40,221 bases of DNA from Bacteroidota bacterium (GTDB taxonomy: Bacteria > Bacteroidota > Bacteroidia > Chitinophagales > Chitinophagaceae), in assembly GCA_013287475.1 (NCBI GenBank), contig JABDDT010000021.1, positions 1 through 40,221 of the forward strand, read 5' to 3'. The notes under the pieces were generated by a model, which saw only the letters and a program-made list of their open reading frames with translations, searched no databases and had not been told where the DNA came from. Position 1 is the stretch's first letter. Each line of letters opens with the position of its first letter. Both the position numbers and the translations under genes were made by a program. Shown piece by piece: positions 2,801 to 39,463 of the stretch.

Positions 2801-2835
2801 GCTTTAGGCTTTAAGCTTTAGGCTTTAGGCTTTTA
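2801..2835. repeat. Heptad repeat tract, GCTTTAG type, 5 units
   Basis: Five in-register 7-base units (three GCTTTAG, one GCTTTAA, one GCTTTTA) lie in the divergent region between the ABC exporter and ruvB, ending 15 bases before the ruvB start. Confidence 0.95.
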
Positions 2836-2850
2836 TGTTACTTTTACTTT

Positions 2851-3879
2851 ATGGCAAATCCCAATCTGAATGCGGATAAAAATCTGACCGGAACACCGGA
2901 TAAAGAATTCGAGAACAGCATTCGTCCCTCAGTTATAAGAGACTTTTCCGGGCAGCCGCAACTCATAGAAAACCTCCTGATCTTTATCCAGGCTGCCAAA
3001 CAAAGAGGTGAAGCCCTCGATCATATTTTATTCCACGGTCCACCGGGTCTTGGTAAAACAACGCTCAGCAGGATTGTTGCCAATGAGCTCGGCGTACAAA
3101 TAAGAGAAACCTCGGGTCCCGTTATCGAAAAACCGGGCGACCTTGCAGGTCTGCTCACCAATCTGGAAGCCAATGATGTTTTGTTCATCGATGAAATTCA
3201 CCGCCTCAGTACAGTGGTGGAAGAATATCTCTACTCAGCGATGGAAGATTACCGTCTTGATATCATGATCGATACAGGTCCCAATGCACGCAGTATACAA
3301 CTTAACCTCAATCCATTTACACTGATCGGTGCTACTACCAGAAGCGGATTGCTGACGGCTCCCCTGTTATCGCGATTTGGAATTAAATCCCGCCTTGAAT
3401 ACTATGACCATATCACCCTTCAAAAAATTATTTCAAGGTCTGCTTCCATCCTGGCAACAAAAATTACTTCGGACGCCGCGCAGGAAATATCAAGGCGAAG
3501 CCGAGGAACACCGCGAATCGCAAATGGTTTACTGAGAAGGGTTCGTGATTTTGCCCAGGTGCTTAGCAACGGAGTAATCGATATGGGAATTACCAAACAC
3601 GCATTGCGCGCGCTGCATGTGGACGAACATGGTCTGGATGAAATGGACAACAGGATTCTTTCCACAATCATAGAAAAATTCAAAGGCGGACCGGTCGGGC
3701 TTAACACCATCTCAACTGCTGTTGGCGAAGAAGCCGGGACGATCGAAGACGTTTATGAACCGTTTTTGATACAGGAAGGTTTTCTGATGCGCACCCCGCG
3801 TGGACGCGAAGCCACGCCAAAAGCCTATCAGCATCTGGGAAGGAAACCTGCATCTGAAGGCGGACCGACATTATTTTAA
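2851..3879 (+). CDS. ruvB: Holliday junction branch-migration helicase RuvB
   Basis: RuvB is the AAA+ motor that drives branch migration of Holliday junctions together with RuvA, before RuvC cleavage. The 342-residue length is normal. Visible motifs are Walker [10 protein letters not shown], Walker B DEIHRL, the sensor-1 region GATTRSG, the arginine-finger neighbourhood [14 protein letters not shown], and the winged-helix C-terminal domain ending [14 protein letters not shown]. The ATG at 2851 gives the expected N-terminus. RuvA and RuvC are not in the window, which is common in Bacteroidota, where ruvB stands alone. The upstream bases 2839-2846 read TACTTTTA, one mismatch from the -7 consensus, so the mRNA may have a very short leader. 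The downstream AraC-type gene is 41 bases away in the same direction. Confidence 0.98.
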
Positions 3880-3920
3880 GAAGAACTATCAATAGTGGCT
3901 TAAATTTATGTTTCATTTCT

Positions 3921-5051
3921 ATGAAAGTATTTTCAGGTTTTTTGGAAACATTGATACTGCTTGGCTCTTTGCAGGGATTTATCATCTCCGTTGTACTTTT
4001 CCTGTCCAAAAATTCAAGACAAAGCAACCGTATTCTGGCAGTACTGATTTTTCTGATGTCGCTCGCCAGTTTCAATTTATATATGACTGGCTCAACATGG
4101 TATGGTCATTCTCCCATTATTATTTTTCTTTCCAACTTCATTCCCATGATCATCATTATGCCCATGGGACCTCTTATCTATTTTTACGTCCGCTCCTTTA
4201 GCGATCCCGCTTTTTTATTTAAAAGAAAATATCGAATTCATTTCTATCCGGTACTGATTGACCTGGTTCCCTATCTTACTGCCCTATTTTATGTTGCAGG
4301 TCTGATATTTAAATTTCTTCCTAAAAATGATGCGCCTTGGGGACTTTTTATAGATCAATACGATGTCTATTCTGATATACCACGCTGGCTATCTATCAGC
4401 ATTTATTTGTGGGTTGCAAATAAATACCTGAAATCTCATTCCCAGCCAATTCCCTGGTTAAAACAGTTGGTACGAATGTTCACCGCTTTCCAGGTAATCT
4501 GGCTTTGTTACCTGATTCCTTATGTGATTCCGAGATTTTCAAACAGGCTTTTGAATTTTTTCGACTGGTACCCAGTGTATCTCCCTATGACTATTTTAAT
4601 TTATTGGCTGGGCATCAAGGGCTACATCGTATCACAGGCTCAAAATGAAAATCACAGGAACCGGAAATCTTCTCCATTAGACAGACAATTGAGTGAGGCC
4701 CTTGTTGAACGTCTGAAGAAAGTCATGGAAGAAGAAAAACCATGGATGGACCCTGCGCTTAACCTTTCCATGTTGTCAACTCATACAGGGATACCGGCCA
4801 AAACGATCTCTGCTGTACTCAACCAGCACCTGAATAAAAGTTTTAATGAATTCATTAATACTTACAGAATAGCTGCCATAAAGTCAAGACTTCTTTCTTC
4901 CAATAATAAAAACCTCACCATTGCGGGTCTCGCCTATGAGTGTGGATTTAACTCCCAACCCACTTTTCAGCGCGCTTTCAAAAACATTCAGGGCGAAAGT
5001 CCGAGTGAATTCCTTTTAAAAAACACTGATTCTGTTAAAGAGTCGGCTTAA
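3921..5051 (+). CDS. Membrane-anchored AraC-family regulator
   Basis: The N-terminal two thirds of this 376-residue protein is hydrophobic, with about six to seven predicted membrane segments (starting LETLILLGSLQGFIISVVLF and including ILAVLIFLMSLASF and NFIPMIIIMPMGPLIYF). The C-terminal roughly 110 residues form an AraC/XylS helix-turn-helix domain, with the typical stretches LNLSMLSTHTGIPAKTISAVL and LTIAGLAYECGFNSQPTFQRA followed by FKNIQGESPSEF. Such proteins sense a signal through the membrane domain and bind DNA with the C-terminal domain; the signal is unknown here. It precedes the M1 peptidase gene by 75 bases in the same direction and may control it or be co-transcribed. The start ATG at 3921 directly begins the hydrophobic N-terminus. 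Confidence 0.9.
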   Translation: MKVFSGFLETLILLGSLQGFIISVVLFLSKNSRQSNRILAVLIFLMSLASFNLYMTGSTWYGHSPIIIFLSNFIPMIIIMPMGPLIYFYVRSFSDPAFLFKRKYRIHFYPVLIDLVPYLTALFYVAGLIFKFLPKNDAPWGLFIDQYDVYSDIPRWLSISIYLWVANKYLKSHSQPIPWLKQLVRMFTAFQVIWLCYLIPYVIPRFSNRLLNFFDWYPVYLPMTILIYWLGIKGYIVSQAQNENHRNRKSSPLDRQLSEALVERLKKVMEEEKPWMDPALNLSMLSTHTGIPAKTISAVLNQHLNKSFNEFINTYRIAAIKSRLLSSNNKNLTIAGLAYECGFNSQPTFQRAFKNIQGESPSEFLLKNTDSVKESA

Positions 5052-5125
5052 TTGTAATCAAATCCGGATTTGAATAGGCGGGGTTCTATAAAACCTCAAT
5101 CTTGCGCCTATTATAAAATATCCCC

Positions 5126-7351
5126 ATGAAGAGAATATTCCTTTTTTGTGTGATCCTGCTGAGCGTTCACTCAGTTTATGCTCAGGACAATAAGTCAGCC
5201 GATTTTACCGGTAATTATCAGGTCGAATATTACCCGGATAGAAAACTGAATATTTACTGGGAGAATAAGAATCTAATGCTGGAGATCGTTGGTCAGGGTA
5301 AAACAGGACTCACTCCATTAACCGGAAATACATTTTCTGTAAACGGACTTCCACATTCTACTATAGAATTTATTCAGGACAGCCAGGGCAGAACGATAAA
5401 ATTCAAATTAGTTCTGAAGGTTCCGGGGACGGAATGGAATAAAATTTCAAAGGATAGCGCAAGTTTAAACTCATCTCCTGAAAATTTGCAAATGTATGAA
5501 GGCAGGTATGCCCAAAAAGGAACCGGATATCAGGTAATCGATATAAAGACAAATTCCGGTCATCTTACAAGTCAAATTCCAGGTGAGACAATCCTGGACT
5601 ATTATCCTCTGGGCCAAAATAAATTCATTTTTAAAAAAGATGATTTCAGTTCAGTATATGAATTCTTGCAGGACAAAAAAGGGCAAATCAATCGTATCCA
5701 TTCAACTGAATCAGGACCGATAGTTTGTGCGAAAGTTACAGACAAGACAACCACTGCCTCTTCTACCAAGCACAATTTTACTCTGCGCAAAGATTTTACC
5801 GAGGCGGATACATTAAGGGGCAACCTATCGCTTTTGCGAACCTGCTACGATGTTTTGTTTTATGATTTGGATGTAAAAGTGGATCCTGATACAAAATCCA
5901 TCCAGGGTAATACTATCATTCGGTTCAGGTCAGTAAATGATTTTAAACTTTTTCAGATTGATCTTTTCGCGAACATGAAAATTGAAAAGATTGTTTTCCA
6001 CGATACGATGCTTAGTTATACCCGAAAAGGTGATGCGGTTTTTGTTCAGTTTCCTGAAATGATAAAACAAGGCACAAAAGATGAAATTCAAATCTACTAT
6101 TCAGGAATTCCACAAGTTCCTGACCTCACTTCATTATCCGGTGGATTTATCTGGACGCATGATAAGAATGGAAAACCCTGGATAGAGACAGTTGTCCAGG
6201 GTTCCGGGGCGAGCCTCTGGTGGCCCTGCAAGGATCACTTGTCTGATAAACCGGACAGCATGCATATCACAGCAACCGTACCAGCAGGATTAACTGTTAT
6301 TTCTAATGGAAGGCTGATTGGTAAAACAGATCTTTCAGATAAACTGGTAAAATTTCAATGGGCTGTAGGTTATCCAATGAATAACTATAGTGCGGTTCTT
6401 TATATCGGAGATTATGTTCATTTCTCAGATCAGTTTGTAAGTGCCATACAAAGTTTTCCGTTGAATTACTATTGTTTGTCATACAATTTGGATTTAGACA
6501 AACAGTTTGTTCAACAAGTAAAACCTCTTATGACCCTTTATGAAAAAGATTTCGGTCCCTATCCATTTCCCCGCGATGGATACGCGCTGGTTGAATCCCC
6601 ATATGGTATGGAACATCAAAGTGCAGTAAGTGCAGGCACATTCAATAACCTTTATGATGGCAAACCGGTAGATTCTATAGCTCATGTCATTGAGTTCTGG
6701 CATGAAACAGCTCATGAGTGGTGGGGAAATTCTGTGACCTGCAATGATATGGCTGATTTCTGGATACACGAATCATTTGCCAGTTATGCAGAAGTATTAT
6801 GTTATGAAAACTTTTTTGGCCCTGCTGCTGCCGAAGAATATTTGAAAAAACAGGATCCTGGAAATAAAGAACCCATTATTGGTTTTTATGATGTAAATGA
6901 TTTTCACATGGGCGATATGTATTCCAAGGGCATGCGCATGATCGCCAGTCTGCGTCAATCCATCAATAATGACTCACTTTTTTTCTCTCTGTTGAAAGGA
7001 ATCCAATCAAAATATAAATATCAGTCTATAAATACAGCAGACGTCATTTCCTATTTTAATAAAGGAACAGGTGCTGACTTCACTTATTTATTTGATCAGT
7101 ATCTCCGGTTTGGACCTATCCCAAAACTTCTCATTTCAAAAAAGACCTCAGGAAAGGATCTTGAATTCCGTTACAAATGGAATGCGAACGTTTCAAATTT
7201 TAGCATGCCGGTAAAAATCACAGCAGGTAAAAAAGAATTCTTCATTTATCCGATCACAGAATGGAAATCAACTTCTCTGATAAACACTTTAACTGACGAT
7301 ATTAAAATAGATAATGTTCATTCCTATTTTCTCATTGAGAAGACGGAATAA
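5126..7351 (+). CDS. M1-family metallopeptidase with extra N-terminal domains
   Basis: This is an exported zinc aminopeptidase of the M1 (gluzincin) family. A Sec signal peptide (MKRIFLFCVILLSVHSVYAQ) is followed by about 200 residues that resemble two copies of the DUF3471 beta-barrel (one starting GNYQVEYYPD, the next YEGRYAQKG), then the M1 beta-domain and catalytic domain. The zinc site is complete: H526-E-T-A-H530 and E549 fit HExxH-X18-E exactly. The exopeptidase motif appears as G494-M-E-H-Q instead of GAMEN. The C-terminal helical domain is short, so the protein is closer to the compact cold-active/bacterial M1 enzymes than to ERAP-type ones. It probably acts in the periplasm or on the cell surface on oligopeptides. 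An inverted repeat made of heptads starts directly after the stop codon. Confidence 0.9.
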   Translation: MKRIFLFCVILLSVHSVYAQDNKSADFTGNYQVEYYPDRKLNIYWENKNLMLEIVGQGKTGLTPLTGNTFSVNGLPHSTIEFIQDSQGRTIKFKLVLKVPGTEWNKISKDSASLNSSPENLQMYEGRYAQKGTGYQVIDIKTNSGHLTSQIPGETILDYYPLGQNKFIFKKDDFSSVYEFLQDKKGQINRIHSTESGPIVCAKVTDKTTTASSTKHNFTLRKDFTEADTLRGNLSLLRTCYDVLFYDLDVKVDPDTKSIQGNTIIRFRSVNDFKLFQIDLFANMKIEKIVFHDTMLSYTRKGDAVFVQFPEMIKQGTKDEIQIYYSGIPQVPDLTSLSGGFIWTHDKNGKPWIETVVQGSGASLWWPCKDHLSDKPDSMHITATVPAGLTVISNGRLIGKTDLSDKLVKFQWAVGYPMNNYSAVLYIGDYVHFSDQFVSAIQSFPLNYYCLSYNLDLDKQFVQQVKPLMTLYEKDFGPYPFPRDGYALVESPYGMEHQSAVSAGTFNNLYDGKPVDSIAHVIEFWHETAHEWWGNSVTCNDMADFWIHESFASYAEVLCYENFFGPAAAEEYLKKQDPGNKEPIIGFYDVNDFHMGDMYSKGMRMIASLRQSINNDSLFFSLLKGIQSKYKYQSINTADVISYFNKGTGADFTYLFDQYLRFGPIPKLLISKKTSGKDLEFRYKWNANVSNFSMPVKITAGKKEFFIYPITEWKSTSLINTLTDDIKIDNVHSYFLIEKTE

Positions 7352-7409
7352 TTATGGGATATGAGATATGAGATATGAAAACCCATAACCCATATCTCAT
7401 ATCCCATAA
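7352..7409. repeat. Heptad tract forming a perfect inverted repeat
   Basis: Arms 7352-7370 and 7391-7409 are exact reverse complements (19 bp) with a 20-base loop. Both arms have a 7-base period (units such as GATATGA and, on the other strand, GGTTATG). The left arm begins at the base after the M1 peptidase stop codon, between convergent genes, so it could act as a hairpin terminator, although no U-run follows. Confidence 0.9.
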
Positions 7410-7419
7410 CCCTTAAAAT

Positions 7420-7475
7420 GCTTTAGGCTTTAGGCGTTAAGCTTTAGGCTTTAGGCTTTAAGCTTTAAGCTTTAA
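7420..7475. repeat. Heptad repeat tract, GCTTTAG type, 8 units
   Basis: Eight units in perfect register (four GCTTTAG, one GCGTTAA, three GCTTTAA). The last unit contains the stop codon of the TonB receptor (7472-7474, minus strand). Confidence 0.95.
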
Positions 7476-9973: not shown

Positions 9974-9989
9974 AAGTAATTGAAGAAAT

Positions 9990-10375: not shown

Positions 10376-10410
10376 TCCATCCACCATAAACCATCTACCA
10401 TTTACCGTCA
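10376..10410. repeat. Heptad repeat tract, GGTNNAT type, 5 units
   Basis: Period-7 units on the plus strand are ACCATAA, ACCATCT, ACCATTT, then ACCGTCA, preceded by TCCATCC; on the minus strand they read GGTAGAT and similar. The stop codon of the thiolase (10408-10410, minus strand) is in the last unit. Confidence 0.85.
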
Positions 10411-11678: not shown

Positions 11679-12740
11679 ATGTACAAATGGCTACGCTTTT
11701 TATTGTTTCTGTTTCCCCCGGAATCCGTACACCAATTTTCAATGTTTATTTTGAATGGAATTTCTTCAACCCGAACCGGACGCTATATATTGAGAAGGGC
11801 GTTTTCTGTTGAAGATCCCTCACTAAATAAAAACTTTGCCGGTATTCTCTTTAAAAACCCTGTTGGACTTGGCGCGGGATTCGATAAAAATGCCCTGTAT
11901 CTGCAAAGCCTGGAGGCGCTGGGTTTTGGATTTATCGAAATTGGTACAGTGACCCCTCTGGCACAGGCTGGTAATCCCAAACCCCGGTTATTCCGACTTA
12001 AAAAAGACAGGGCACTGATCAACCGTATGGGTTTTAATAATCATGGAGTGGATAAAATATCAGAAAGATTAAAGAAATGGAAAGAAAAATCTGCGGAATC
12101 CGGAAACGGACGATTGAAGATTGGAGGAAATATCGGAAAAAATAAATTAACTCCGAATGAAAATGCCTGGCAGGATTATACCATATGTTTTGAAAAATTG
12201 TTTCCCTGGGTAGATTATTTCGTGGTAAATGTCAGCTCTCCGAATACTCCTGGTTTAAGGGAGCTTCAGGAGAAAGAATCATTGCGTGTTATATTAACGA
12301 AACTGCAGGATCTCAACAGAAAACAACAGATCCAAAAACCCCTGTTCCTTAAAATCTCGCCTGATCTTTCCAATTTCCAGCTGGACGATGTAATTGAGCT
12401 TTCAGAAGAAATTCATCTCGACGGGTTGGTTGTATGTAATACAACCATTTCTAGAGATGGATTAAATAGTCCGTCTGAAAAACTTGAACGTATCGGTGCT
12501 GGCGGACTCAGTGGTGGTCCTCTTAAAAAAAAATCAACAGAATTTATTCAGTACATCGGGCAAAAAACAAATCATCGAATACCTATTATTGGTTCCGGTG
12601 GCATTCATTCCGCTGATGATGCAAAGGAAAAAACAACAGCCGGCGCCGGACTGATTCAAATATGGACCGGGTTTATTTATGAAGGCCCGGGTCTTGTGCG
12701 TGAAATATTAAATGCCCAAAGCTTAAAGCTTAAAGCCTAA
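11679..12740 (+). CDS. pyrD: Dihydroorotate dehydrogenase (quinone), class 2
   Basis: PyrD oxidises dihydroorotate to orotate with FMN and passes electrons to quinones at the inner membrane, the fourth step of pyrimidine synthesis. Class 2 is shown by the N-terminal membrane-associating helix (MYKWLRFLLFLFPPESVHQF) and by the catalytic serine segment NVSSPNTPGLRELQ. FMN-binding features include GLGAGFDKNA, NRMGFNNHG, the lysine in FLKISPDL and IPIIGSGGIHS. The 353-residue length is normal. The last codons (reading SLKLKA and stop) are encoded by a heptad repeat tract, so the C-terminal tail has been shaped by the repeat. It stands alone between two minus-strand genes. Confidence 0.97.
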   Translation: MYKWLRFLLFLFPPESVHQFSMFILNGISSTRTGRYILRRAFSVEDPSLNKNFAGILFKNPVGLGAGFDKNALYLQSLEALGFGFIEIGTVTPLAQAGNPKPRLFRLKKDRALINRMGFNNHGVDKISERLKKWKEKSAESGNGRLKIGGNIGKNKLTPNENAWQDYTICFEKLFPWVDYFVVNVSSPNTPGLRELQEKESLRVILTKLQDLNRKQQIQKPLFLKISPDLSNFQLDDVIELSEEIHLDGLVVCNTTISRDGLNSPSEKLERIGAGGLSGGPLKKKSTEFIQYIGQKTNHRIPIIGSGGIHSADDAKEKTTAGAGLIQIWTGFIYEGPGLVREILNAQSLKLKA

Positions 12741-12743
12741 AAC
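12713..12743. repeat. Heptad repeat tract at the pyrD 3' end
   Basis: Units AGCTTAA (twice) and AGCCTAA in register, preceded by a degenerate unit. The tract codes for the last residues of PyrD and holds its stop codon (12738-12740). Confidence 0.9.
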
Positions 12744-12815
12744 TTCTTTTTAGAATTAAAATTTTTGTTCCCTTTCTATAAGATTTTTTACAATTAATTA
12801 TTGTATTAGTTTTCG

Positions 12816-12844
12816 GCTTTAGGCTTTTAGCTTTGGGCTTATTA
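12816..12844. repeat. Heptad repeat tract at the rsmE 3' end, 4 units
   Basis: Units GCTTTAG, GCTTTTA, GCTTTGG and a degenerate fourth unit; the rsmE stop codon (12842-12844, minus strand) overlaps the end. Together with the pyrD tract it brackets the convergent pyrD/rsmE junction. Confidence 0.85.
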
Positions 12845-15523: not shown

Positions 15524-16966
15524 TTAATTTGTTTCTTTGGTTTTAGTTTTATCGTCGGGTTTTTGATCGGGAGCAACTGGTTTTGGTGCCGGTTTATTGT
15601 TTGCTGGTATTGGCTTTTGACCCGGATGACCGTTATTAGGGTTATGATTTGCAGTAGGCCGCCCGGTAGTTTGTGTATGATTTACGTTAGAAGACTGCGG
15701 CGCTGAATTATTTTGATTAGTATGATCGTTGGGTGTTGACTGATAGGAACGGTTTGCATTCATGTTAGATTTTACCGGTTGATTTGTTTGCGACGGCTGC
15801 TGATTTGTATTGGGATTTGGGTTGTCGGTTCTTGCATTATTTGGTGGACGGTTATTTGCCGGTTGATTATTTGCAGGATTCTGCGTTGCAAGCTGATTGT
15901 TTGAATTGTTTTGAGATGAAGGCCGGTTATCATGATTTGCAGGCTGATTATTTACAGGTTGATTGCCCGCAGGAACCTGCGTCATGGGCCTGTTGTTATA
16001 TGCAGGCTGATTATTTGATGGTTGATCTGCAGAAGGATTTTGCGTTGCCTGCCTGTTGTTATTTGCGGGATGAGCATTATTGTTTGATTGATTATAATTT
16101 GGATACTGCGGGGAAGGACGCAGATTATTGAATGACTCATAATGTGCCGGTGCAGGGGGATTTGACGGTCTTCCAGCAGCGTCGTTACGGGCAGCTGGTG
16201 CAGCGTTTACTCTTGGCTGATAAATCATATACTGCGACCCTGAAACTCTTTCTCCAGGTGTATTAGCTTCTCTGAGTTGTACCGGTGTAAAATTATTCCC
16301 ACTGACCCTTCTAACTTCATTGGGATCGGGCCCTGGTGCATATGCGTACCGGCTTCTGTTCGTTCCGCTATAGTTATTGATTATAGTGGTATTGTTGATT
16401 ATCGTTACGTTTCTGTTCACTTCCACATTGTAATTGTGCCATCCGGGATTTCCGATATACTGGCGGGGAACAAAATTCCAATAATAAGCTGGTGGCGTAT
16501 AATTATTGAGGGCCATATCTACTGAAATCCTTGGACCTATCGGTGCCCAGCCATAATAATCTCCGCTTCCTCTCCAGCTTACCCAGGCCGGAGCCCACTC
16601 GTTACCAGGCATCCACATCCAGCCGTAGCCGTCTTCATAAAACCAGCGTCCATAATGGAATGGTGCCCATCCCCAGCTATAATTCGAGGCCCAGGTCCAT
16701 CCCGCATCCGTGTAAATCCAGTTCCCATTGGTAGAATAGGGTCTGAAATCGGGGCCTGCATTGGGCATCCAAACATAACCGTATCCGGGATAATTGATCC
16801 AGTTTCCATAGGGAGATAGCTGGTCATAGAATGACTGGTAGGATAAGTTTTCTACCGGCGCCGGTGCAGGAGCGGGTTGGTAAGAATCTGACTGAACTAC
16901 AACATGTGTAGGTCCACAGGAAGCAATCAACAGGCTGGCAGACAATAAGAGATATAAGTTTTTCAT
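15524..16966 (-). CDS. YXWGXW-repeat lipoprotein with Asn/Gln/Pro-rich tail
   Basis: A 480-residue predicted lipoprotein: signal peptide with lipobox LLIASC. After a short Pro/Ala linker come about 150 residues with repeated Tyr/Trp/Gly motifs (SPYGNWINYPGYGYVWMP, GWTWASNYSWGWAPFHYGRW, YEDGYGWMWMPGNEWAPAW, YYGWAPIGPR), which define the YXWGXW / DUF6600-like group. From about residue 250 the protein is low-complexity, dominated by Asn, Gln, Pro and Ser with near-repeats of NNQPANNQ. It is probably anchored in the outer membrane with the tail exposed or in the periplasm. No enzymatic motif is visible; the function is unknown. It is a single-gene unit, with a terminator after it and two heptad tracts upstream. 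Confidence 0.88.
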   Translation of the reverse strand: MKNLYLLLSASLLIASCGPTHVVVQSDSYQPAPAPAPVENLSYQSFYDQLSPYGNWINYPGYGYVWMPNAGPDFRPYSTNGNWIYTDAGWTWASNYSWGWAPFHYGRWFYEDGYGWMWMPGNEWAPAWVSWRGSGDYYGWAPIGPRISVDMALNNYTPPAYYWNFVPRQYIGNPGWHNYNVEVNRNVTIINNTTIINNYSGTNRSRYAYAPGPDPNEVRRVSGNNFTPVQLREANTPGERVSGSQYMIYQPRVNAAPAARNDAAGRPSNPPAPAHYESFNNLRPSPQYPNYNQSNNNAHPANNNRQATQNPSADQPSNNQPAYNNRPMTQVPAGNQPVNNQPANHDNRPSSQNNSNNQLATQNPANNQPANNRPPNNARTDNPNPNTNQQPSQTNQPVKSNMNANRSYQSTPNDHTNQNNSAPQSSNVNHTQTTGRPTANHNPNNGHPGQKPIPANNKPAPKPVAPDQKPDDKTKTKETN

Positions 16967-17081
16967 GTTATAAAATTCGTTGGTTATTCATACTACTATG
17001 AAGGGCATAAAGGTTGAAAGTATAAGATATTTAGAACGATTAACATTTATTTATAGTGTGTTCGCTAAAACCCTGCCATTT

Positions 17082-17130
17082 ACGCTTAACGCGTAACGCA
17101 TTACGCTTAACGCGTTAAGCGTAATGCGAA
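17082..17130. repeat. Heptad tract containing a perfect 32-base palindrome
   Basis: Seven period-7 units of the GCTTAAC family (units such as ACGCTTA, ACGCGTA, ACGCATT, then turning into the opposite orientation). Positions 17097-17128 form a perfect palindrome centred on ACGCGT. Confidence 0.92.
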
Positions 17131-17239
17131 ATGCCATTCTTTAACGTTATTCTACAATATCATGTGGTTGGTGCTCTACACTTTTTTTAAAAATACAACA
17201 GAGAAATGGGTCTATGATCCGTGTCTTACGCATTTTATC

Positions 17240-17316
17240 GCGTTAAGCGTTACGCCTTACGCGTTAAGCCTTACGCGTTAAGCGTTAAGCCATACGCATT
17301 AAGCGTTAAGCGTTTA
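17240..17316. repeat. Heptad repeat tract, GCGTTAA type, 11 units
   Basis: Eleven units in unbroken register (five GCGTTAA, with GCGTTAC, GCCTTAC, GCCATAC, GCATTAA, GCGTTTA). It ends 12 bases before the pheT promoter element. This and the preceding tract fill much of the 389-base gap between the lipoprotein gene and pheT; I see no gene there. Confidence 0.95.
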
Positions 17317-17327
17317 ACGTAAAAAAG

Positions 17328-23253: not shown

Positions 23254-24759
23254 TTGTTTTCTTTCACTTCCATACATGAATATCAGGAAGCCCTGAAAGA
23301 GGGTTCATATTCCTGCCGTGATGCTGTTATATTTTATCTCGAACGCATTCACCGGTTGAGTTATCTTAACGCGTTTGCACATCTCTATGAAAAAGAATCT
23401 CTCCAAACGGCAGACAAACTGGATGCAGATCACAGTGCCGGAATAATGCCAGGAAGATTACATGGAGTAGTAATTGGTATCAAAGATGTTATTTGTTATA
23501 GGGACCATCCGGTAACCGCGGGTTCACATATTCTGGAAGGATTTCATTCTCTGTATAGCGCTACGGTTGTAGAACATCTGATAAGGGAGGGTGCCATCAT
23601 TATTGGCCACCTTAACTGTGACGAGTTTGCTATGGGTTCGAGTAATGAAAATTCTATCTATGGCCGGGTTAAAAATGCACTTGATCCTGAAAAAGTGCCA
23701 GGGGGGTCATCCGGAGGATCAGCCGTAGCCGTTCAGGCTTCTCTATGCATGCTTTCCCTGGGCAGCGATACAGGGGGTTCTGTTCGTCAGCCGGCAGATT
23801 TCTGCGGCGTAATCGGCCTGAAACCCACTTATGGACGAATTTCACGTTATGGGCTGATAGCTTATGCCTCTTCTTTTGACCAGATTGGCTTATTCGCCAG
23901 GAATATTAAAGATATTTCCCTTGTGCTCGAAATCATAGCCGGATTCGACCCTAAGGACTCGACTTCCTCCCGCCGGCCAGTACCTTCTTATGCTGAACGC
24001 TTAAGGCTTAACGCTCAAGGCTTAACGCAGAACGCTGAACGGTCAACCGTCATCGGTCAACCGTCATCCTATAAAATCGCTGTTCTTAAAGAAGCCCTCG
24101 AACACCCTTCGCTCGACCCTGAAATCAGGTCAAAACTCCGCGATTTTATTGGTGATCTCCGATTAAAGGGCTATCAGGTAAAAGAGATATCCTTTGACCT
24201 GTTGGATTATATTGTTCCCGCATATTACATACTGACAACCGCAGAAGCTTCTTCCAATTTATCCCGTTTTGACGGTGTAAGGTATGGGCACCGGACCAAA
24301 GTGCCTGATGCAGGCTTTCCGGAATTTTATCAGGAAACCCGTTCTGAAGGCTTTGGAAAAGAAGTAAAGCGCAGGATCCTCCTGGGCACTTTTGTATTAA
24401 GCTCAGGGTATTATGAAGCATATTTCAGTAAGGCACAAAAAGTAAGAAGAATTTTAACAGAACGTACTAGATTGATTTTCAATGAATTTGATATAATCCT
24501 CAGTCCCACAGCTCCTTCCACGGCATTCAAATCCGGTGAAAAAACCTCCGATCCGGTAGCCATGTATCTCGCTGATTTATATACGGTTTACGCAAATCTG
24601 GTCGGTATTCCGGGTATTTCCCTGCCTCTCTTTACCCATACAAACGGCATGCCTTTTGGTATCCAAGCTATGACGAACCAATTTCGTGAATTATCTTTAC
24701 TGCAGTTCTCTGAAGAACTCCTACAGCAATATAAGTCCTACGAAATTCCGACTCTATGA
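23254..24759 (+). CDS. gatA: Glutamyl-tRNA(Gln) amidotransferase subunit A, with repeat insertion
   Basis: GatA is the amidase subunit of GatCAB, which converts Glu-tRNA(Gln) (and Asp-tRNA(Asn)) to the amidated form. Amidase-signature motifs are complete: the catalytic lysine in GVVIGIKDVI, the cis-serine in PGGSSGGSAVAV and the nucleophilic serine in GSDTGGSVRQPADF. I use the TTG at 23254 (giving MFSFTSIHEYQEAL) because no in-frame ATG precedes the conserved part; a TTG at 23233 is also possible. Between VPSY and YKIAVLKEAL, about 26 residues are encoded by eleven heptad repeat units (23992-24068), in frame and without stops. The insertion lies in the linker after the catalytic core, so the enzyme is probably still active. 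The protein (501 residues) is somewhat longer than usual for the family. Confidence 0.94.
   Translation: MFSFTSIHEYQEALKEGSYSCRDAVIFYLERIHRLSYLNAFAHLYEKESLQTADKLDADHSAGIMPGRLHGVVIGIKDVICYRDHPVTAGSHILEGFHSLYSATVVEHLIREGAIIIGHLNCDEFAMGSSNENSIYGRVKNALDPEKVPGGSSGGSAVAVQASLCMLSLGSDTGGSVRQPADFCGVIGLKPTYGRISRYGLIAYASSFDQIGLFARNIKDISLVLEIIAGFDPKDSTSSRRPVPSYAERLRLNAQGLTQNAERSTVIGQPSSYKIAVLKEALEHPSLDPEIRSKLRDFIGDLRLKGYQVKEISFDLLDYIVPAYYILTTAEASSNLSRFDGVRYGHRTKVPDAGFPEFYQETRSEGFGKEVKRRILLGTFVLSSGYYEAYFSKAQKVRRILTERTRLIFNEFDIILSPTAPSTAFKSGEKTSDPVAMYLADLYTVYANLVGIPGISLPLFTHTNGMPFGIQAMTNQFRELSLLQFSEELLQQYKSYEIPTL
23992..24068. repeat. Heptad repeat tract inside gatA, 11 units
   Basis: Eleven 7-base units in unbroken register: seven of the GCTTAAC family followed by four of the GGTCAAC/CGTCATC family. 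It is entirely inside the gatA reading frame. Units 1, 4, 7 and 10, whose bases 4-6 fall on a codon, read GAA or CAA there; units 2, 3 and 5, out of phase, keep TAA. Confidence 0.97.
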
Positions 24760-29099: not shown

Positions 29100-29107
29100 C
29101 AAAAGTA
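29100..29107 (-). promoter_or_regulatory. Promoter -7 element of purA
   Basis: On the minus strand TACTTTTG, exact match, 22 bases before the purA ATG. It touches the heptad-made inverted repeat, which therefore occupies the place of the upstream promoter element. Confidence 0.55.
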
Positions 29108-29199
29108 ATTGTTAATGGTTAATTGTTAATGGTTAATTATTAACGACCAGGTTTTGTTTTATACACCATTGAGCATTAACAATTAACCATTAACAATTA
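29106..29199. repeat. GGTTAAT-type heptads forming a 26-bp inverted repeat
   Basis: Arms 29106-29131 and 29174-29199 are exact reverse complements (26 bp) with a 42-base loop. Each arm is a period-7 tract (GGTTAAT, TGTTAAT and the like). The outer end of the right arm includes the stop codon of the (p)ppGpp synthase gene (29197-29199); the left arm reaches the purA promoter. Confidence 0.95.
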
Positions 29200-31468: not shown

Positions 31469-31503
31469 GCGCAACGCCTAACGCTTAACGCTTAACGCTT
31501 TAG
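31469..31503. repeat. Heptad repeat tract, GCTTAAC type, 5 units
   Basis: Units GCGCAAC, GCCTAAC, GCTTAAC (twice) and GCTTTAG in register, just upstream of the Rel/SpoT promoter. The last unit shows a direct step from the GCTTAAC to the GCTTTAG form. Confidence 0.92.
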
Positions 31504-31606: not shown

Positions 31607-31697
31607 TTTAGGCTTTAGGCTTTAGGCTTTAGGCTTTAGGCTTTAGGCTTTAGGCTTTAGGCTTTAGGCTTTAAGCTTTAAGCTTTAAGCTTTAAGC
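31607..31697. repeat. Longest heptad tract: 13 units before tRNA-Leu
   Basis: Nine TTTAGGC units followed by four TTTAAGC units, without a single indel, ending 7 bases before the tRNA. This is the most homogeneous tract, so probably the most recently expanded. Confidence 0.98.
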
Positions 31698-31704
31698 TTA
31701 AAAT

Positions 31705-31786
31705 GCGGGTGTGGCGAAATTGGCAGACGTATCAGACTTAGGATCTGACGCCGTAAGGCATGTAGGTTCGAGTCCTATCACCCGCA
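31705..31786 (+). tRNA. tRNA-Leu (anticodon TAG)
   Basis: Class II tRNA that reads CUN leucine codons. The acceptor stem GCGGGTG / CACCCGC pairs over 7 bp with discriminator A at 31786. The anticodon stem TCAGA / TCTGA encloses the loop CTTAGGA with anticodon TAG at 31739-31741. A long variable arm with GCC / GGC pairing follows, and the T loop is TTCGAGT. CCA is not encoded. A strong terminator starts 2 bases downstream, and a 13-unit heptad tract lies directly upstream. Confidence 0.97.
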
Positions 31787-33502: not shown

Positions 33503-33565
33503 GTTCAGCGTTCCGCGTTAAGCGTTATGCGTTCCGCGTTCAGCGTTAAGCATTCCGCTTAAAGC
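33503..33565. repeat. Heptad repeat tract, GTTAAGC type, 9 units
   Basis: Nine units in register (GTTCAGC, GTTCCGC, GTTAAGC, GTTATGC and others, ending with TTAAAGC). The last unit carries the final codon and the stop (33559-33561, minus strand) of the alcohol dehydrogenase. Confidence 0.94.
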
Positions 33566-34717: not shown

Positions 34718-34779
34718 GATGACCGTTGACCGATGACCGTTTTAGCTTTAGGCTTTAGGCTTTAAGATTTAAGCATTTT
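34718..34779. repeat. Mixed heptad tract: GAYGACC then GCTTTAG type
   Basis: Three units of the GGTCAAC/GGTCATC family (reverse strand) run without a gap into GTTTTAG, GCTTTAG (twice), GCTTTAA, GATTTAA and a last degenerate unit. It ends just before the tig promoter. Confidence 0.93.
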
Positions 34780-34784
34780 TTCCG

Positions 34785-34792
34785 TAGTTTTG
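34785..34792 (+). promoter_or_regulatory. Promoter -7 element of tig
   Basis: TAGTTTTG, exact match to TAnnTTTG. It overlaps the upstream open frame (ATG-like start at 34790) and thus supports the ATG at 34847 with a leader of about 50 bases. Confidence 0.6.
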
Positions 34793-34846
34793 CAGCCCGT
34801 TTCCAGAATGCAGACCCGCCTTTGGGACAGAAGTAAAAAAAATATT

Positions 34847-36229: not shown

Positions 36230-36235
36230 TTGTTG

Positions 36236-36264
36236 ATCCCTCCGGCAAAAACGGGGGGATTTTT
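36236..36264 (+). terminator. Rho-independent terminator of tig
   Basis: Stem ATCCCTCCG / CGGGGGGAT (9 bp with one G-T pair), 7-base loop, then four Ts and CTTTG. It lies 7 bases after the tig stop codon, so clpP must have its own promoter or depend on read-through. Confidence 0.85.
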
Positions 36265-36369
36265 CTTTGTCGCCTGCAACTCTGTCAGTTTTTTGGAAGT
36301 TTAAAAGTTTGGACGGAGATTTGAAAGGTAATCCGCGGTAATCCATCCTCAAGAAAAAATAATTCTACT

Positions 36370-37065
36370 ATGCATCTTGGTTCCGAATTTGAAAAATACG
36401 CCGTTAAGCACTTAGGCCTTTCCAGCAATACATTAAATGGTTATGAAAAATACCTGGTAACCGGACTCACGCCGAATATCATCGAGGAACGTCCCATGAA
36501 TGTGGCCGTTATGGATGTTTACAGTCGTTTGATGATGGACCGTATCATCTTCCTGGGTTATCCCATCAATGATGAAGTAGCCAATATCATTACTGCGCAG
36601 TTGCTTTTTCTGGACAGTACAGACCGCCATCGCGACATACAGATGTATATCAACAGCCCTGGTGGATCCGTATATTCCGGTCTTGGTGTGTATGACACGA
36701 TGCAATATGTTACTCCTGATGTAGCCACCATCTGTATAGGTATGGCTGCTTCCATGGGCGCCACACTGATGTGTGCGGGCACCAAAGGAAAAAGAACGGC
36801 TCTTAAACACAGTCGTGTGATGATGCACCAACCCAGCGGTAGTATTGGTGGACAAGCCAGCGATATTGAAATTACTGTGAATGAAATCAGAAAACTGAAA
36901 AAGGAACTTTACGATATCTATGCATTTCATACGGGTAAGACCACCAAGCAGATTGAAAAAGATTCTGATCGTGACTACTGGTTAACTGCCGTTGAAGCTA
37001 AAGAATATGGACTGGTGGATGAAGTACTTGTGATCAATCCCAGAAAAGACAAAAAAGAAAATTAA
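36370..37065 (+). CDS. clpP: ATP-dependent Clp protease proteolytic subunit (first copy)
   Basis: ClpP forms the 14-subunit serine-protease chamber that works with ClpX. This 231-residue copy has the nucleophile Ser128 in GMAASMGATLM, His153 in VMMHQPSG and the aspartate region DSDRDYWLTAVEAKEYGLVDEV, so the triad is complete. The N-terminal ~35 residues ahead of NVAVMDVYSRLMMDRIIF are probably a propeptide. A second clpP follows after 19 bases, and clpX next. Confidence 0.96.
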   Translation: MHLGSEFEKYAVKHLGLSSNTLNGYEKYLVTGLTPNIIEERPMNVAVMDVYSRLMMDRIIFLGYPINDEVANIITAQLLFLDSTDRHRDIQMYINSPGGSVYSGLGVYDTMQYVTPDVATICIGMAASMGATLMCAGTKGKRTALKHSRVMMHQPSGSIGGQASDIEITVNEIRKLKKELYDIYAFHTGKTTKQIEKDSDRDYWLTAVEAKEYGLVDEVLVINPRKDKKEN

Positions 37066-37084
37066 CATATTTTAAAATCATACG

Positions 37085-37720
37085 ATGAAATACGCCAAAT
37101 ACCCTGTTAATCCTTTTCGCCTGGATGATGAGCCTTCCGAAGAAAAAGAAGACAAGCCGCAAACGGATCCAGGTATGCTGATGAAAAAACTGGAAAAGTA
37201 TTTTTTTGATACCCGTACTGTGCAGCTCTGGGGACCGGTAGATGACCGTTCAGCAAAAGATATAATTAATAAATTTTTCCTGCTTGACGTTGATAAACCC
37301 GGTGTGGAAATCAAATTCCTGATTAATAGTCCGGGAGGAATGGTAACCAGTGGAATGGCGATCTACGATGTAATGAGGATGATGAAGAGCCCGGTTAGCA
37401 CTGTTTGTATCGGACTTGCTGCTTCCATGGGATCAATACTATTGAGTGGAGGTACCAGGGGCAGAAGATTTATTTATCCGCATGGAGAAGTTATGATCCA
37501 TCAGCCAAGTCTGGGAGGATATATCCAGGGTGTGAGCGTTGATCTTGAAATACAGGCAAAACAGACCAAAAGAGTTAAAGAGATCGCAGCTAAAATACTG
37601 GCTGAAAACTGTGGCAAGAAATACGATCAGATCATGAGGGATTTTGACCGCGATTACTGGATGGATGCCAAGGAGTCTGTTGAGTATGGCATTGCTGACG
37701 GCATAAGTGCGGAATTGTAA
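37085..37720 (+). CDS. clpP: ATP-dependent Clp protease proteolytic subunit (second copy)
   Basis: A 211-residue ClpP paralogue with complete triad: Ser114 in GLAASMGSILLSGG, His139 in VMIHQPSLGG, Asp in DFDRDYWMDAKESVEYGIADG. It is clearly different from the first copy: the N-terminus has a charged stretch (RLDDEPSEEKEDKPQTDP), followed by KYFFDTRTVQLWGPVDDRSA, and the head-domain has GYIQGVSVDLEIQAKQ. It starts 19 bases after the first clpP and is surely co-transcribed. The two could form mixed rings (as ClpP1P2 in other bacteria) or separate ones. Confidence 0.95.
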   Translation: MKYAKYPVNPFRLDDEPSEEKEDKPQTDPGMLMKKLEKYFFDTRTVQLWGPVDDRSAKDIINKFFLLDVDKPGVEIKFLINSPGGMVTSGMAIYDVMRMMKSPVSTVCIGLAASMGSILLSGGTRGRRFIYPHGEVMIHQPSLGGYIQGVSVDLEIQAKQTKRVKEIAAKILAENCGKKYDQIMRDFDRDYWMDAKESVEYGIADGISAEL

Positions 37721-37725
37721 TACAA

Positions 37726-37760
37726 GCTTAAGGCTTAAGGCGCAAAGCGTAAGGCTTTTT
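37726..37760. repeat. Heptad repeat tract, GCTTAAG type, 5 units
   Basis: GCTTAAG (twice), GCGCAAA, GCGTAAG and a T-rich last unit, starting 5 bases after the second clpP stop. Confidence 0.88.
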
Positions 37761-37792
37761 TAATTTATGGGCATAAGTTCCACTCCTATATT

Positions 37793-37824
37793 CATATACT
37801 CTTATACTCTTATACTTCCATACT
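37793..37824. repeat. Period-8 tandem repeat (CTTATACT type)
   Basis: Four 8-base units (CATATACT, CTTATACT twice, TCCATACT) between two heptad tracts upstream of clpX. Related in style to the octad tract at 934-957. Confidence 0.85.
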
Positions 37825-37825
37825 T

Positions 37826-37860
37826 GCCTTAAGCCTTTAGCCTTACGCTTTAAGCTTTTA
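37826..37860. repeat. Heptad repeat tract, GCCTTAA type, 5 units
   Basis: GCCTTAA, GCCTTTA, GCCTTAC, GCTTTAA and GCTTTTA in register, ending just before the clpX promoter region. Confidence 0.9.
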
Positions 37861-37863
37861 TGC

Positions 37864-37894
37864 TTGGTTTTCGTAGATAAGTTGACTATTTTTA
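37864..37894 (+). promoter_or_regulatory. Possible promoter of clpX
   Basis: TTG at 37864-37866, 20-base spacer and TATTTTTA at 37887-37894 (one mismatch from TAnnTTTG). Transcription would begin near 37901, about 10 bases before the ATG. Confidence 0.35.
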
Positions 37895-37911
37895 CAGTTA
37901 TTTGAAATTAA

Positions 37912-39147
37912 ATGGCTAAAAATACCCTTCATTGTTCTTTCTGTGGCCGAAGCCGGGATGAGGTGAAAATTCTCATTGCGGGTCAGGAAGGACATATATG
38001 TGAAAACTGCGTGGAACATGCGCAGGAGATCATTCAGCAGGAGCTGATTGTTCGTGATGACGCATCTCCTTCTTCCCAATTTAAACTTACAGTTAAAAAA
38101 CCCATCGAGATCAAAAGATTTCTGGATGAGTATGTAATCGGCCAGGATGAAGCAAAAAAAGTGCTTGCAGTGGCCGTTTATAATCATTATAAAAGATTAC
38201 AGCAGAAAGTCACCGAGAATGATGTTGAAATTGAAAAAAGCAATATCATCATGGTGGGTGAAACCGGTACAGGAAAGACCCTTCTTGCAAAGACCATTGC
38301 AAAACTGCTCAATGTTCCATTCGCGATAGTGGATGCAACCGTATTTACAGAAGCAGGATATGTGGGAGAAGATGTTGAAAGCATCCTCACTCGTCTGTTG
38401 CAGGTTTGTAATTATGATGTAGTCAGCGCTGAAAGAGGCATTGTATATATTGATGAAATTGATAAGATTGCACGTAAAGGTGACAACCCATCAATAACAC
38501 GGGATGTGAGTGGCGAAGGTGTTCAGCAGGGATTACTCAAACTGCTTGAGGGAACCGATGTACTTGTGCCACCACAGGGAGGCCGCAAACATCCGGAACA
38601 AAAGCTCATAAAGATCAACACACAAAATATTTTATTCGTTTGCGGCGGTGCATTCGATGGTGTAGATAAAATCATCGCGCGCAGAATTAATACCAATGCG
38701 ATCGGATTCAATGTAAATAAAGAGCAGCAGGAATTCACACGTAAGAATTTATTACAGTATGTGAATGCACCTGACCTGAAATCCTTTGGACTTATTCCTG
38801 AACTTCTGGGTCGTTTGCCCATTGTAACTCATTTGAATCCATTGGACAGCATATCACTCCGGTCTATATTAACGGAACCTAAGAATTCGCTGATCAGACA
38901 ATATAAAAGATTATTTGAACTTGAGGGTATACAGCTGAGCATCGATGATGATGTGCTTGATTTCATGGTGACCAAAGCCGTTGAATACAAACTCGGCGCG
39001 CGCGGACTACGCAGTATTTGTGAAAGTATTCTTACTGACGCTATGTTTGAACTTCCTTCTTCAAAAGAAAATAAATTTCATTTGGACCTGGAATATGCGC
39101 GGAAAAAATTTGATACAAGCAAGATGAGTTTACTCAAGGTAGCTTAA
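37912..39147 (+). CDS. clpX: ATP-dependent Clp protease ATP-binding subunit ClpX
   Basis: ClpX unfolds proteins and feeds them to ClpP. The 411-residue protein has the N-terminal zinc-binding domain (Cys8, Cys11, Cys30, Cys33 in HCSFCGRS and HICENCVEH), Walker A GETGTGKT, the pore loop [11 protein letters not shown], Walker [10 protein letters not shown], the arginine-finger region [11 protein letters not shown] and the sensor-2 LGARGLRSI. Length is normal. The gene's stop codon is in the first unit of a heptad tract. Confidence 0.98.
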
Positions 39148-39168
39148 AGCCTAAAGCTTAAAGCCTAA
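39141..39168. repeat. Heptad repeat tract at the clpX 3' end, 4 units
   Basis: AGCTTAA and AGCCTAA alternate twice. The clpX stop codon (39145-39147) is in the first unit. Confidence 0.95.
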
Positions 39169-39205
39169 AACTACATTCCAGTTAAAAGTTTATTCCCGAT
39201 AGAAT

Positions 39206-39379
39206 ATGAAAGAATTGCTCGATAAATTAAAAGCCGAAGGATTGACGGAAGCGCAGGCTATAAAAGCAGTTGAGATCATGAAAAATTTCGCCAAATCCAA
39301 ATTCCCTTTATTTGGCGGCGCGATCGATAAAATATTTGATAAATACAGCAAGCAGGCGGAGGAAGATTTTATGCCTTAG
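39206..39379 (+). CDS. Small conserved-looking protein, 57 residues
   Basis: A short ORF starting at the ATG at 39206 (MKELLDKLKAEGLTEAQAIK) and ending at the TAG at 39377. It is helical, with the pattern GLTEAQAIKAVEIMKNFAKSKFPLFGGAIDKIF. I recall similar ~60-residue proteins in Bacteroidota with EGLTxEQA and KFPML-type motifs but no assigned function. It lacks a signal peptide. It is downstream of clpX across a heptad tract and ends with another heptad tract whose first unit may include its stop. Confidence 0.65.
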   Translation: MKELLDKLKAEGLTEAQAIKAVEIMKNFAKSKFPLFGGAIDKIFDKYSKQAEEDFMP

Positions 39380-39382
39380 AAA

Positions 39383-39410
39383 GCCTAATGCCCAACGCCC
39401 AACGCCTAAA
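39383..39410. repeat. Heptad repeat tract, GCCCAAC type, 4 units
   Basis: GCCTAAT, GCCCAAC (twice), GCCTAAA in register. A further matching unit, GCCTTAG at 39373-39379, out of register by 3 bases, contains the stop codon of the small protein. Confidence 0.88.
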
Positions 39411-39442
39411 TCTTTTTCTAAATTGCAACTCAGGATGAATCC

Positions 39443-39463
39443 GGTCAATGGTCAACAGTCAAC
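39443..39463. repeat. Heptad repeat tract, GGTCAAC type, 3 units
   Basis: GGTCAAT, GGTCAAC, AGTCAAC. The third unit contains the stop codon of the acyl-CoA dehydrogenase (39459-39461, minus strand). Confidence 0.88.

What the first reader, a model, noticed from the sequence alone, without database searches (positions are those of the whole stretch)
2801..39463. A family of strict period-7 repeat tracts dispersed about every 2 kb
Seen directly: about nineteen tracts of 3-13 consecutive 7-base units, almost all without indels, lie mainly between housekeeping genes (main examples at 7420, 17240, 23992, 31607, 33503). The sequence of the unit differs between tracts but the period does not. Most units, on one strand or the other, fit one skeleton close to G-S-T-N-N-A-N (GCTTTAG, GCTTAAC, GGTTAAT, GGTCAAC, GGTAGAT). 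Related dispersed heptanucleotide repeats (STRR) are known in some cyanobacteria; I know of none described in Bacteroidota. Fixed period with drifting sequence suggests that the length of the unit, not its sequence, is what the generating process preserves, for instance slippage on a 7-base step or a polymerase that copies a short template.
Basis: partly seen in the sequence, partly recalled or inferred. Interest (0 to 1): 0.85.

Follow-up and report, generated by a model that had tools for sequence, protein, structure and literature searches.

The report
Edge-oriented seven-base repeats between genes
This soil bacterium carries many short seven-letter stutters between its genes; they often sit in mirror-image pairs with one strand nearly always facing the same way from the gene edge, a striking but not wholly new form of known bacterial seven-letter repeats.

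Summary
The window has 21 period-7 tracts (score >=10), against 0 in each of three shuffles. In 434,730 bp of the genome: 102 for period 7, 37 for period 8, at most 6 for any period not a multiple of 7 or 8. The organism is a Chitinophagaceae MAG; intergenic tracts in 80 relatives' loci number 69 (p7), 21 (p8), at most 9 for other periods.

(1) Tracts form inverted pairs: 80 of 144 have a reverse-complement partner, against 11 when transplanted. (2) The strand read from a gene edge inward is nearly always of one, purine-rich, type, whichever way the gene points: 30/31 held-out pairs, 30/30 classifiable pairs of another genus, 94 of 105 typed single-tract regions.

Best reading: DNA-level growth by heptad slippage plus inverted templating, limited by selection at gene edges. 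In gatA a tract is extra in-frame DNA. RT or RAYT is not supported. The same edge orientation is published for Xanthomonas and Nostoc heptads (PMC4692102), heptamers for Bacteroidetes (PMC4679880). Verdict: new variant of a known kind.

The parts
2801..2833 (.). period-7 tract (GCTTTAG family, right-type), upstream of ruvB
   Evidence: RuvB by Pfam
7353..7378 (.). left arm, TATGAGA family; inverted partner of 7380-7416, loop about 6 nt
7380..7416 (.). right arm, CATATCY/CATAACC family
7420..7475 (.). period-7 tract, GCTTTAG family, right-type, reaches the 3' end of the minus-strand TonB receptor gene
   Evidence: Pfam
10377..10406 (.). weak period-7 tract (CCATCTA)
12718..12741 (.). left arm AAAGCTT, overlaps the stop codon of the dihydroorotate dehydrogenase gene; partner of 12811-12840
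   Evidence: Pfam
12811..12840 (.). right arm TTTAGGC, abuts the convergent minus-strand gene
17079..17134 (.). left arm ACGCTTA, itself partly palindromic; partner of 17240-17320; no tract in the orthologous region of G073, G085 and G088
17240..17320 (.). right arm GCGTTAA, ends just before a TATCTTTG promoter-like box of pheT (Bacteroidota box recalled, not tested)
   Evidence: Pfam
23992..24069 (.). period-7 tract inside gatA (Amidase): the loop is 16 residues longer than in G085/G088 and 4 longer than in G071
29106..29143 (.). left arm TAATTGT, partner of 29167-29199, 32-bp arms, loop 30; orthologous region of G085/G088 is 66 nt without it
29167..29199 (.). right arm ACAATTA, overlaps the 3' end of relA/spoT
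31473..31500 (.). left arm AACGCTT upstream of relA/spoT
31607..31702 (.). longest window tract, 13.3 units TTTAGGC, right-type, next to tRNA at 31705
33503..33554 (.). period-7 tract GTTCAGC, right-type, convergent region
34720..34739 (.). short period-7 tract TGACCGT
34745..34773 (.). period-7 tract GCTTTAG, right-type, near a plus-strand start
37726..37755 (.). left arm GCTTAAG, partner of 37826-37858
37782..37824 (.). period-8 tract (ACTCTTAT) nested inside the pair 37726/37858
37826..37858 (.). right arm GCCTTAA
39141..39169 (.). left-type tract AGCCTAA, overlaps a stop codon
39380..39409 (.). left-type tract AAAGCCTAA
39443..39463 (.). short period-7 tract GGTCAAT/GGTCAAC

Best explanation
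The tracts are neutral or nearly neutral DNA growths. Step 1: a 7-bp (less often 8-bp) stretch at a place free of strong constraint is duplicated and expanded by replication slippage, so later changes keep the period while units mutate (shown: fixed period, drifting units, near-equal identity at lags 7, 14 and 21; inferred: slippage). Step 2: an array is copied in inverted orientation across a short spacer by fold-back template switching, or the two arms are homogenised by conversion, giving matched arms around a core (shown: matched inverted arms; inferred: mechanism). Step 3: selection trims them to the edges of coding DNA, so they start at stop codons or some way before starts, and are rarer between divergent genes (shown in the two tract-rich genomes; not in the sparser relatives; the role of selection is inferred). 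Step 4: mostly one orientation survives or forms, the purine-rich strand running from gene edge inward (shown; cause unknown, possibly a bias of 3'-end extension).
For: Period 7 then 8 dominates intergenic DNA in own, in 80 relatives' loci and in G055, while coding tracts in relatives are mostly of periods 6, 9 and 12. Long tracts are as alike at lags 14 and 21 (0.83) as at 7 (0.84). Pairing: 80/144 vs 11 transplanted; second own set 51/91 vs 11; G055 52/194 vs 12. Words of 18-28 nt shared between distant loci stay within the range of 20 unit-order shuffles (18-24 nt above their mean, 28 nt equal to it), while tracts under 1 kb apart exceed all shuffles for 21-28 nt, in small numbers. Gain, loss or replacement at orthologous sites in one genus. 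Extra in-frame DNA in gatA: 16 residues in own, 12 in G071, relative to G085/G088. Tract distance to 3' ends: median 0 nt (own, n=156), 76 overlapping; to 5' ends median 24 (n=61). In tandem gene pairs own and relatives show no G-U over A-C preference among arm mismatches (25 vs 36; 18 vs 23), so no sign of RNA-hairpin selection there. In G055 unpaired tracts obey the polarity about equally at 5' and 3' edges (47:7, 69:8).
Against: G055 does show a G-U over A-C excess (35 vs 9, p=1e-4), which RNA selection or transcription-linked deamination could cause. Plain slippage or template switching predicts random orientation, yet tracts with no detected partner are oriented too (76 of 85 typed single-tract regions). 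Some cores hold, by eye, intrinsic-terminator-like hairpins, which a break-and-extend model does not explain. G055 pairs a smaller share of its tracts. No strain-level length variation could be looked at.
Confidence: 0.5

Rival explanations
1. Functional 3'-end RNA hairpins: tract pairs are bidirectional terminators, mRNA stabilisers or insulators, and selection keeps the arms complementary.
For: 3'-end association in the two tract-rich genomes: intergenic regions >=80 nt with a p7/p8 tract, own convergent 32/56, tandem 69/222, divergent 15/109; G055 24/38, 74/158, 8/43. G055 G-U excess 35:9. Ordinary intergenic hairpins in the family also have A-rich 5' arms.
Against: Relatives lack the association (3/53, 49/600, 17/128). 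Own and relatives show no G-U preference. Pairs also lie between divergent genes (own 5 of 45 and 0 of 31, G055 3 of 32, relatives 6 of 30); one tract lies inside gatA; tracts without a partner keep polarity. Ordinary hairpins have only weakly G>C 5' arms (81:58) against 29:3 for heptad hairpins of the relatives.
Confidence: 0.2
2. A palindromic non-autonomous mobile element (REPIN/MITE-like) inserts as left arm, core and right arm; polarity is inherited by descent, and unpaired tracts are decayed copies.
For: Dispersed, mostly intergenic, inverted pairs, genome-specific vocabulary, burst-like distribution in the genus (1147, 357, 160, then 26 or fewer pattern hits, both strands counted).
Against: Cores are not alike between loci apart from tract remnants and short matches. 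Y1_Tnp (RAYT, PF01797) has no match in the three tract-richest genus genomes (58-77% complete) but is present in 23 of 33. No clear block sharing between distant loci. A mononucleotide score learned on own carries over to pairs of other genera with other units (22/24), so descent alone does not explain polarity.
Confidence: 0.2
3. A dedicated enzyme (telomerase-like reverse transcriptase or a terminal polymerase) adds heptads at the 3' ends of breaks between genes, so the extended strand is purine-rich on both sides.
For: Polarity is that expected of two 3' ends growing toward each other; the inward strand is 60-63% purine in four data sets; nested families.
Against: No PF00078 match in the tract-rich genomes G000, G064, G071 (58-77% complete). 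Cores of up to 172 nt, some with terminator-like hairpins, are not expected. Terminal polymerases were not searched.
Confidence: 0.07

Closest known systems
GGGAATC / GGGGA(T/C)T heptameric repeats of Xanthomonas and Nostoc (PMC4692102; abstract start, passages, sections 13 and 16 read)
   Same: Dispersed, mostly intergenic heptads (about 180 sites in each of two Xanthomonas genomes, by a figure legend); [quoted passage not shown] under-represented between divergent ORFs; inverted repeats mentioned; function unknown.
   Different: There a G-rich, G-quadruplex-forming unit; here many drifting units, most without G-runs, systematic inverted pairs and a period-8 class. Quadruplex formation is therefore unlikely to be the general reason for the orientation.
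TAACTGA direct repeats of Beggiatoaceae, Cyanobacteria and five Bacteroidetes (PMC4679880; abstract, passages, section 12 read)
   Same: Intergenic heptamer arrays, including Bacteroidetes with other heptamers nearby; present in one species and not evident in a close relative.
   Different: One fixed sequence, in the main host mostly just upstream of start codons; inverted pairs not described in what I read; few sets in Bacteroidetes.
Heptanucleotide excess among prokaryotic simple sequence repeats (Mrazek et al. 2007, not held; known here only as cited in PMC4679880 and PMC4692102, and from passages of PMC4060949)
   Same: Seven is a commonly over-represented long repeat unit in bacteria; a link to the DNA length held by the polymerase was proposed.
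   Different: No inverted pairs or drifting multi-family arrays in the passages I read.
REP/REPIN elements with RAYT transposases (defining features recalled)
   Same: Dispersed intergenic palindromes with inverted pairing.
   Different: No common hairpin sequence, and no RAYT match in the tract-richest genomes.

Membership tests
Dispersed bacterial heptanucleotide repeats (Xanthomonas/Nostoc kind) | tandem 7-nt units, dispersed, mostly intergenic | tested here: met
Dispersed bacterial heptanucleotide repeats (Xanthomonas/Nostoc kind) | strand orientation set by the nearest ORF edge, irrespective of ORF direction | tested here: met
   published rule. In relatives by G-C skew it holds at 5' edges (36:8) but not at 3' edges (15:19)
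Dispersed bacterial heptanucleotide repeats (Xanthomonas/Nostoc kind) | G-rich, G4-forming unit | tested here: not met
   Commonest units AAAGCCT, AACGCTT, AAAGCTT, AACAATT
TAACTGA repeats | unit TAACTGA | tested here: not met
   Its canonical form is not in the printed list of 30 own unit families (105 tracts)
REP/REPIN with RAYT | RAYT (Y1_Tnp) in the genome | tested here: not met
   0 matches in G000, G064, G071; genomes 58-77% complete
REP/REPIN with RAYT | conserved palindrome sequence | tested here: not met
   Several unit families; cores unlike
Intrinsic terminators | hairpin then U-run at gene 3' ends, not elsewhere | tested here: inconclusive
   3'-end enrichment in two genomes but not in relatives; pairs also between divergent genes and one tract in gatA; U-runs not scored
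Template-copying reverse transcriptase product | co-occurring RT gene | tested here: not met
   PF00078 0 in G000, G064, G071; incomplete genomes

The most novel reading that the evidence does not exclude
Bacterial heptad tracts are made by one general process that grows DNA from the edge of constrained sequence toward the intergenic centre, with a preferred 7-bp step and a purine-rich growing strand. The same orientation in Chitinophagaceae, Xanthomonas and Nostoc, with unrelated units, would be the signature of 3'-end extension and fold-back copying at breaks or stalled forks, not of G-quadruplexes or gene regulation.
Probability: 0.25. Interest if true: 0.8.

Novelty: new variant of a known kind. 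Interest (0 to 1): 0.6.

Why it matters
The 7-nt preference in bacterial repeats has been noted since 2007 (as cited in PMC4692102) and is still unexplained. Here one genus holds a genome with over a thousand hits of the main pattern next to relatives with none, a second genus offers a tract-rich genome in one long contig, and a simple compositional score predicts strand orientation across genera. That makes the generating process testable, and suggests that quadruplex formation is not needed for the orientation reported in Xanthomonas and Nostoc.

Tried and rejected
RAYT/REPIN origin: no PF01797 match in the tract-richest genomes. Reverse transcriptase: no PF00078 match there. Loss of the hairpin nuclease SbcD as the cause: TIGR00619 passes its cut-off in only 2 of 33 genus genomes and 2 of 49 genomes reached through loci (one of these is evidently the same genome), so it is near-absent in tract-rich and tract-poor genomes alike; weak matches in frames of about 420 aa may be divergent relatives. 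Stop codons as the reason for polarity: more on the inward strand (168 vs 82 in own) but largely explained by composition (shuffled 120 vs 62), and this cannot explain 5' edges. G>C skew as the polarity rule: holds in the first own set (32:11) and relatives (28:2) but not in the second own set (14:15) or G055 (13:13); purine richness of the inward strand is the shared part. Mobile element with a common core: cores unlike. Rfam at gathering scores: only the tRNA at 31705-31786. Convergent-gene enrichment as universal: not in relatives. G-quartets: most units lack G-runs. Rho-utilisation-like C-rich arms: considered from memory, dropped because the main GCTTTAG family has no pyrimidine-C step.

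A shared vocabulary between species: exact matches not beyond chance, one-mismatch matches modestly. Literature: the listings of six searches (10-20 rows shown of each) named no paper on inverted heptad pairs in Chitinophagaceae; absence from print rests on those rows of an open-licence library only.
Full report
OBSERVATION. A lag-7 scan of the window finds 21 tracts at score >=10 (22 at >=9) covering 869 bp, with 0 in each of three shuffles; lags 4-24 except 7, 14 and 21 give 0-3. Tandem Repeats Finder agrees and reports almost no indels. The genome is a 74% complete assembly of 3,163,783 bp in 137 contigs. In 434,730 bp of it there are 102 period-7 and 37 period-8 tracts (score >=12), 75 at lag 14 and 49 at lag 21, and no more than 6 at periods 2-6 and 9-13, with shuffles at 0 or 1. 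In a further 397,069 bp the intergenic counts (score >=11) were p7 64, p8 18, no other period of 4-12 above 2. Many contigs had shown hits when chosen; in the stretches taken from the first nine contigs (C1-C9) there were 115 p7 tracts in about 615 kb.

WHERE IT LIVES. The 80 best RelA/SpoT relatives kept by the search are, by their record titles, mostly Chitinophagaceae or unplaced Bacteroidota, including isolates such as Puia, Niastella, Flavihumibacter, Pinibacter and Sediminibacterium; one carries a Beijerinckiaceae label. In their loci (1.51 Mb) intergenic tracts number 69 for period 7, 21 for period 8, 9 for period 11 and 4 or fewer for the other periods of 4-12 (shuffled 0-1), while coding tracts have periods 6, 9 and 12 (66, 43, 29) and 14 are p7; 43 of 80 loci hold at least one intergenic p7 or p8 tract. 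A sample from 20 genomes across the phylum (332 kb; four stretches were under 10 kb because the contig was short; one was taken at a known hit) gave 4 and 4. The main unit pattern, GCNTNAN three times, occurs 1,147 times in the window's genome, 357 in G071, 160 in G064, 26 in G082, 24 in G072 and 9 or fewer in the other 28 genomes of the genus, and at most 76 times in the other 147 genomes of a phylum sample. Both strands are counted and the pattern reads nearly alike on both, so arrays count about twice. A doublet pattern marks a second tract-rich genome, G055, of another genus, whose C1 is 7,287,640 bp. So the tracts are not an artefact of fragmented assemblies, and they rise and fall fast.

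ANATOMY. Several unit families (GCTTTAG/AACGCTT, CATATCY, GGTCAAC, AATTAAC, and 8-mers such as ACTCCCAT) coexist. Many tracts are one half of an inverted pair: 80 of 144 have a reverse-complement partner of score >=14 within 350 nt, against 11 when each tract is transplanted to another tract's flanks; direct partners show no excess (12 against 16). The second own set gives 51 of 91 against 11, and G055, where pairing is less frequent, 52 of 194 against 12. Arms lie close to the gene edges in most own pairs; cores are unlike each other except for tract remnants and short matches, and a few hold, by eye, terminator-like hairpins. Families can be nested.

POLARITY. Define as left type the strand found in left arms. 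Pairs agree with the other pairs of the genome in 43 of 45 cases. With vocabulary learned on the first set, 30 of 31 pairs of the second own set agree, the other being a tie; in G055 30 of 30 classifiable pairs agree by leave-one-out, 2 are unclassifiable. Tracts without a partner, typed by the pairs' vocabulary, sit on the predicted side (left type near the left gene, right type near the right gene) 50:6 in the first own set, 24:5 in the second and 116:15 in G055. Regions holding exactly one tract, typed without any word from that region, obey the rule 52:7 in own (2 untyped) and 42:4 in G055 (7 untyped); of those without a detected partner 40:5 and 36:4. In regions with both types the order is left then right in 70 of 70 (own) and 38 of 39 (G055), leaving out the region itself; 2 and 13 further regions held one type only and 3 in G055 fewer than two typed tracts. 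In G055 the rule holds at 5' edges (47:7) and 3' edges (69:8) alike. A mononucleotide score learned on the window's genome is right for 29 of 32 pairs of relatives, 22 of 24 when the first loci (L051-L065, mostly the same genus) are left out, and 26 of 32 in G055; learned on relatives it is right for 59 of 76 own pairs. The strand running from the gene edge inward is 60-63% purine. Against the rule: scored by G-C skew alone, tracts of relatives are concordant at 5' edges (36:8) but not at 3' edges (15:19), 12 being unscored. Counts within one genome are not independent, because families are related, so the p-values are too small.

POSITION. Tracts lie at stop codons (own 3' ends: n=156, median distance 0 nt, 76 overlapping) but a median 24 nt (own, n=61) or 54.5 nt (G055, n=76) from starts; G055 3' ends have median 5 (n=116). 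In own and G055, tracts favour convergent over divergent regions (32/56 vs 15/109, p=1e-8; 24/38 vs 8/43, p=8e-5), but relatives do not (3/53 vs 17/128). Gene calls are from my own hexamer script, not a standard gene finder.

EVOLUTION. At orthologous regions of five genomes of the genus (not every region was found in every genome), tracts are present, absent or replaced between conserved flanks. The relA/spoT 3' hairpin is in own, G071 and G064 with the same unit family, and G085/G088 have 66 nt without it; the pheT upstream pair is in own and G071 but not in G073, G085 or G088; upstream of relA/spoT own has AACGCTT/TTTAGGC arms and G085 has GTTGACG arms. One tract sits inside gatA (Amidase), where own is 16 residues and G071 12 residues longer than G085 and G088 in the same loop, frame kept; that this is gain and not loss is inferred. 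It argues for growth of new DNA and against a need for an intergenic role. Between distant loci, the number of locus pairs sharing words of 18-24 nt is above the mean of arrays with shuffled unit order but within the range of 20 shuffles (287, 154, 106 against maxima 295, 161, 108), and at 28 nt equal (36 against mean 36.1); 9, 8 and 4 pairs of tracts within 1 kb share words of 21, 24 and 28 nt against maxima of 8, 6 and 3 (small numbers). Units are not shared between relatives beyond chance when matched exactly, and modestly so within one mismatch.

TESTS OF FUNCTION. If RNA hairpins were selected, arm mismatches read along the transcript in tandem gene pairs should favour G-U over A-C. Own gives 25 against 36 (17:17 and 8:19), relatives 18 against 23, but G055 gives 35 against 9. 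The test speaks against RNA selection in two data sets and for it, or for transcription-linked cytosine deamination, in one. RAYT and reverse transcriptase genes have no match in the tract-rich genus genomes, which are 58-77% complete; G055 was not searched for them.

PRIOR WORK. Heptanucleotide excess in prokaryotes is long known (Mrazek 2007, not held; cited). MacGregor 2015 reports TAACTGA and other heptamers in five Bacteroidetes. GGGAATC and GGGGA(T/C)T repeats of Xanthomonas and Nostoc show the same edge orientation, stop-codon overlap and scarcity between divergent ORFs. What I did not find in those texts, and report here, is the family-wide drifting-unit form, the matched inverted pairs, the polarity without G-runs, and the gatA case.

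VERDICT. A new variant of a known kind. The most likely cause is DNA-level growth (slippage on a 7-bp step plus inverted templating) limited by selection at gene edges; the origin of the polarity is open and is the interesting question.

Noticed in passing
window 23992-24069: Heptad tract inside gatA, in-frame, in own and (weaker) in G071; the loop is shorter in G085 and G088.
   Followed up: yes
own contigs C1 (first 80 kb) and C4 (first 60 kb): Almost tract-free (1 and 0 p7 tracts) beside dense contigs such as C2 and C6; could be chromosome position, gene content or mixed binning.
   Followed up: no
genus and family genomes: Canonical SbcD (TIGR00619) passes the cut-off in only 2 of 33 genus genomes and 2 of 49 genomes reached through loci; near-absence of a hairpin nuclease might permit long inverted repeats.
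   Followed up: partly
L246:3216-3322 (G055): Near-perfect period-8 array AATGTGCG, about 13 copies, lying between AATTGAC-type tracts at 3077 and 3428.
   Followed up: no
L115:741-797 and L116:361-482: Long arrays in relatives: TATTGAC, about 8 perfect copies, and a 122-nt AACCTCG/AACCTCC array.
   Followed up: no
G222 (phylum sample): The backward-read control pattern hit 127 + 127 times, so another Bacteroidota family probably carries many heptads of a different unit.
   Followed up: no
window 15938-16073: A 63-bp repeat, 2.2 copies, inside the ORF at 15524-16966.
   Followed up: no
G055 arm mismatches: Strong G-U over A-C excess (35:9) along transcripts, unlike the window's genome (25:36).
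   Followed up: partly
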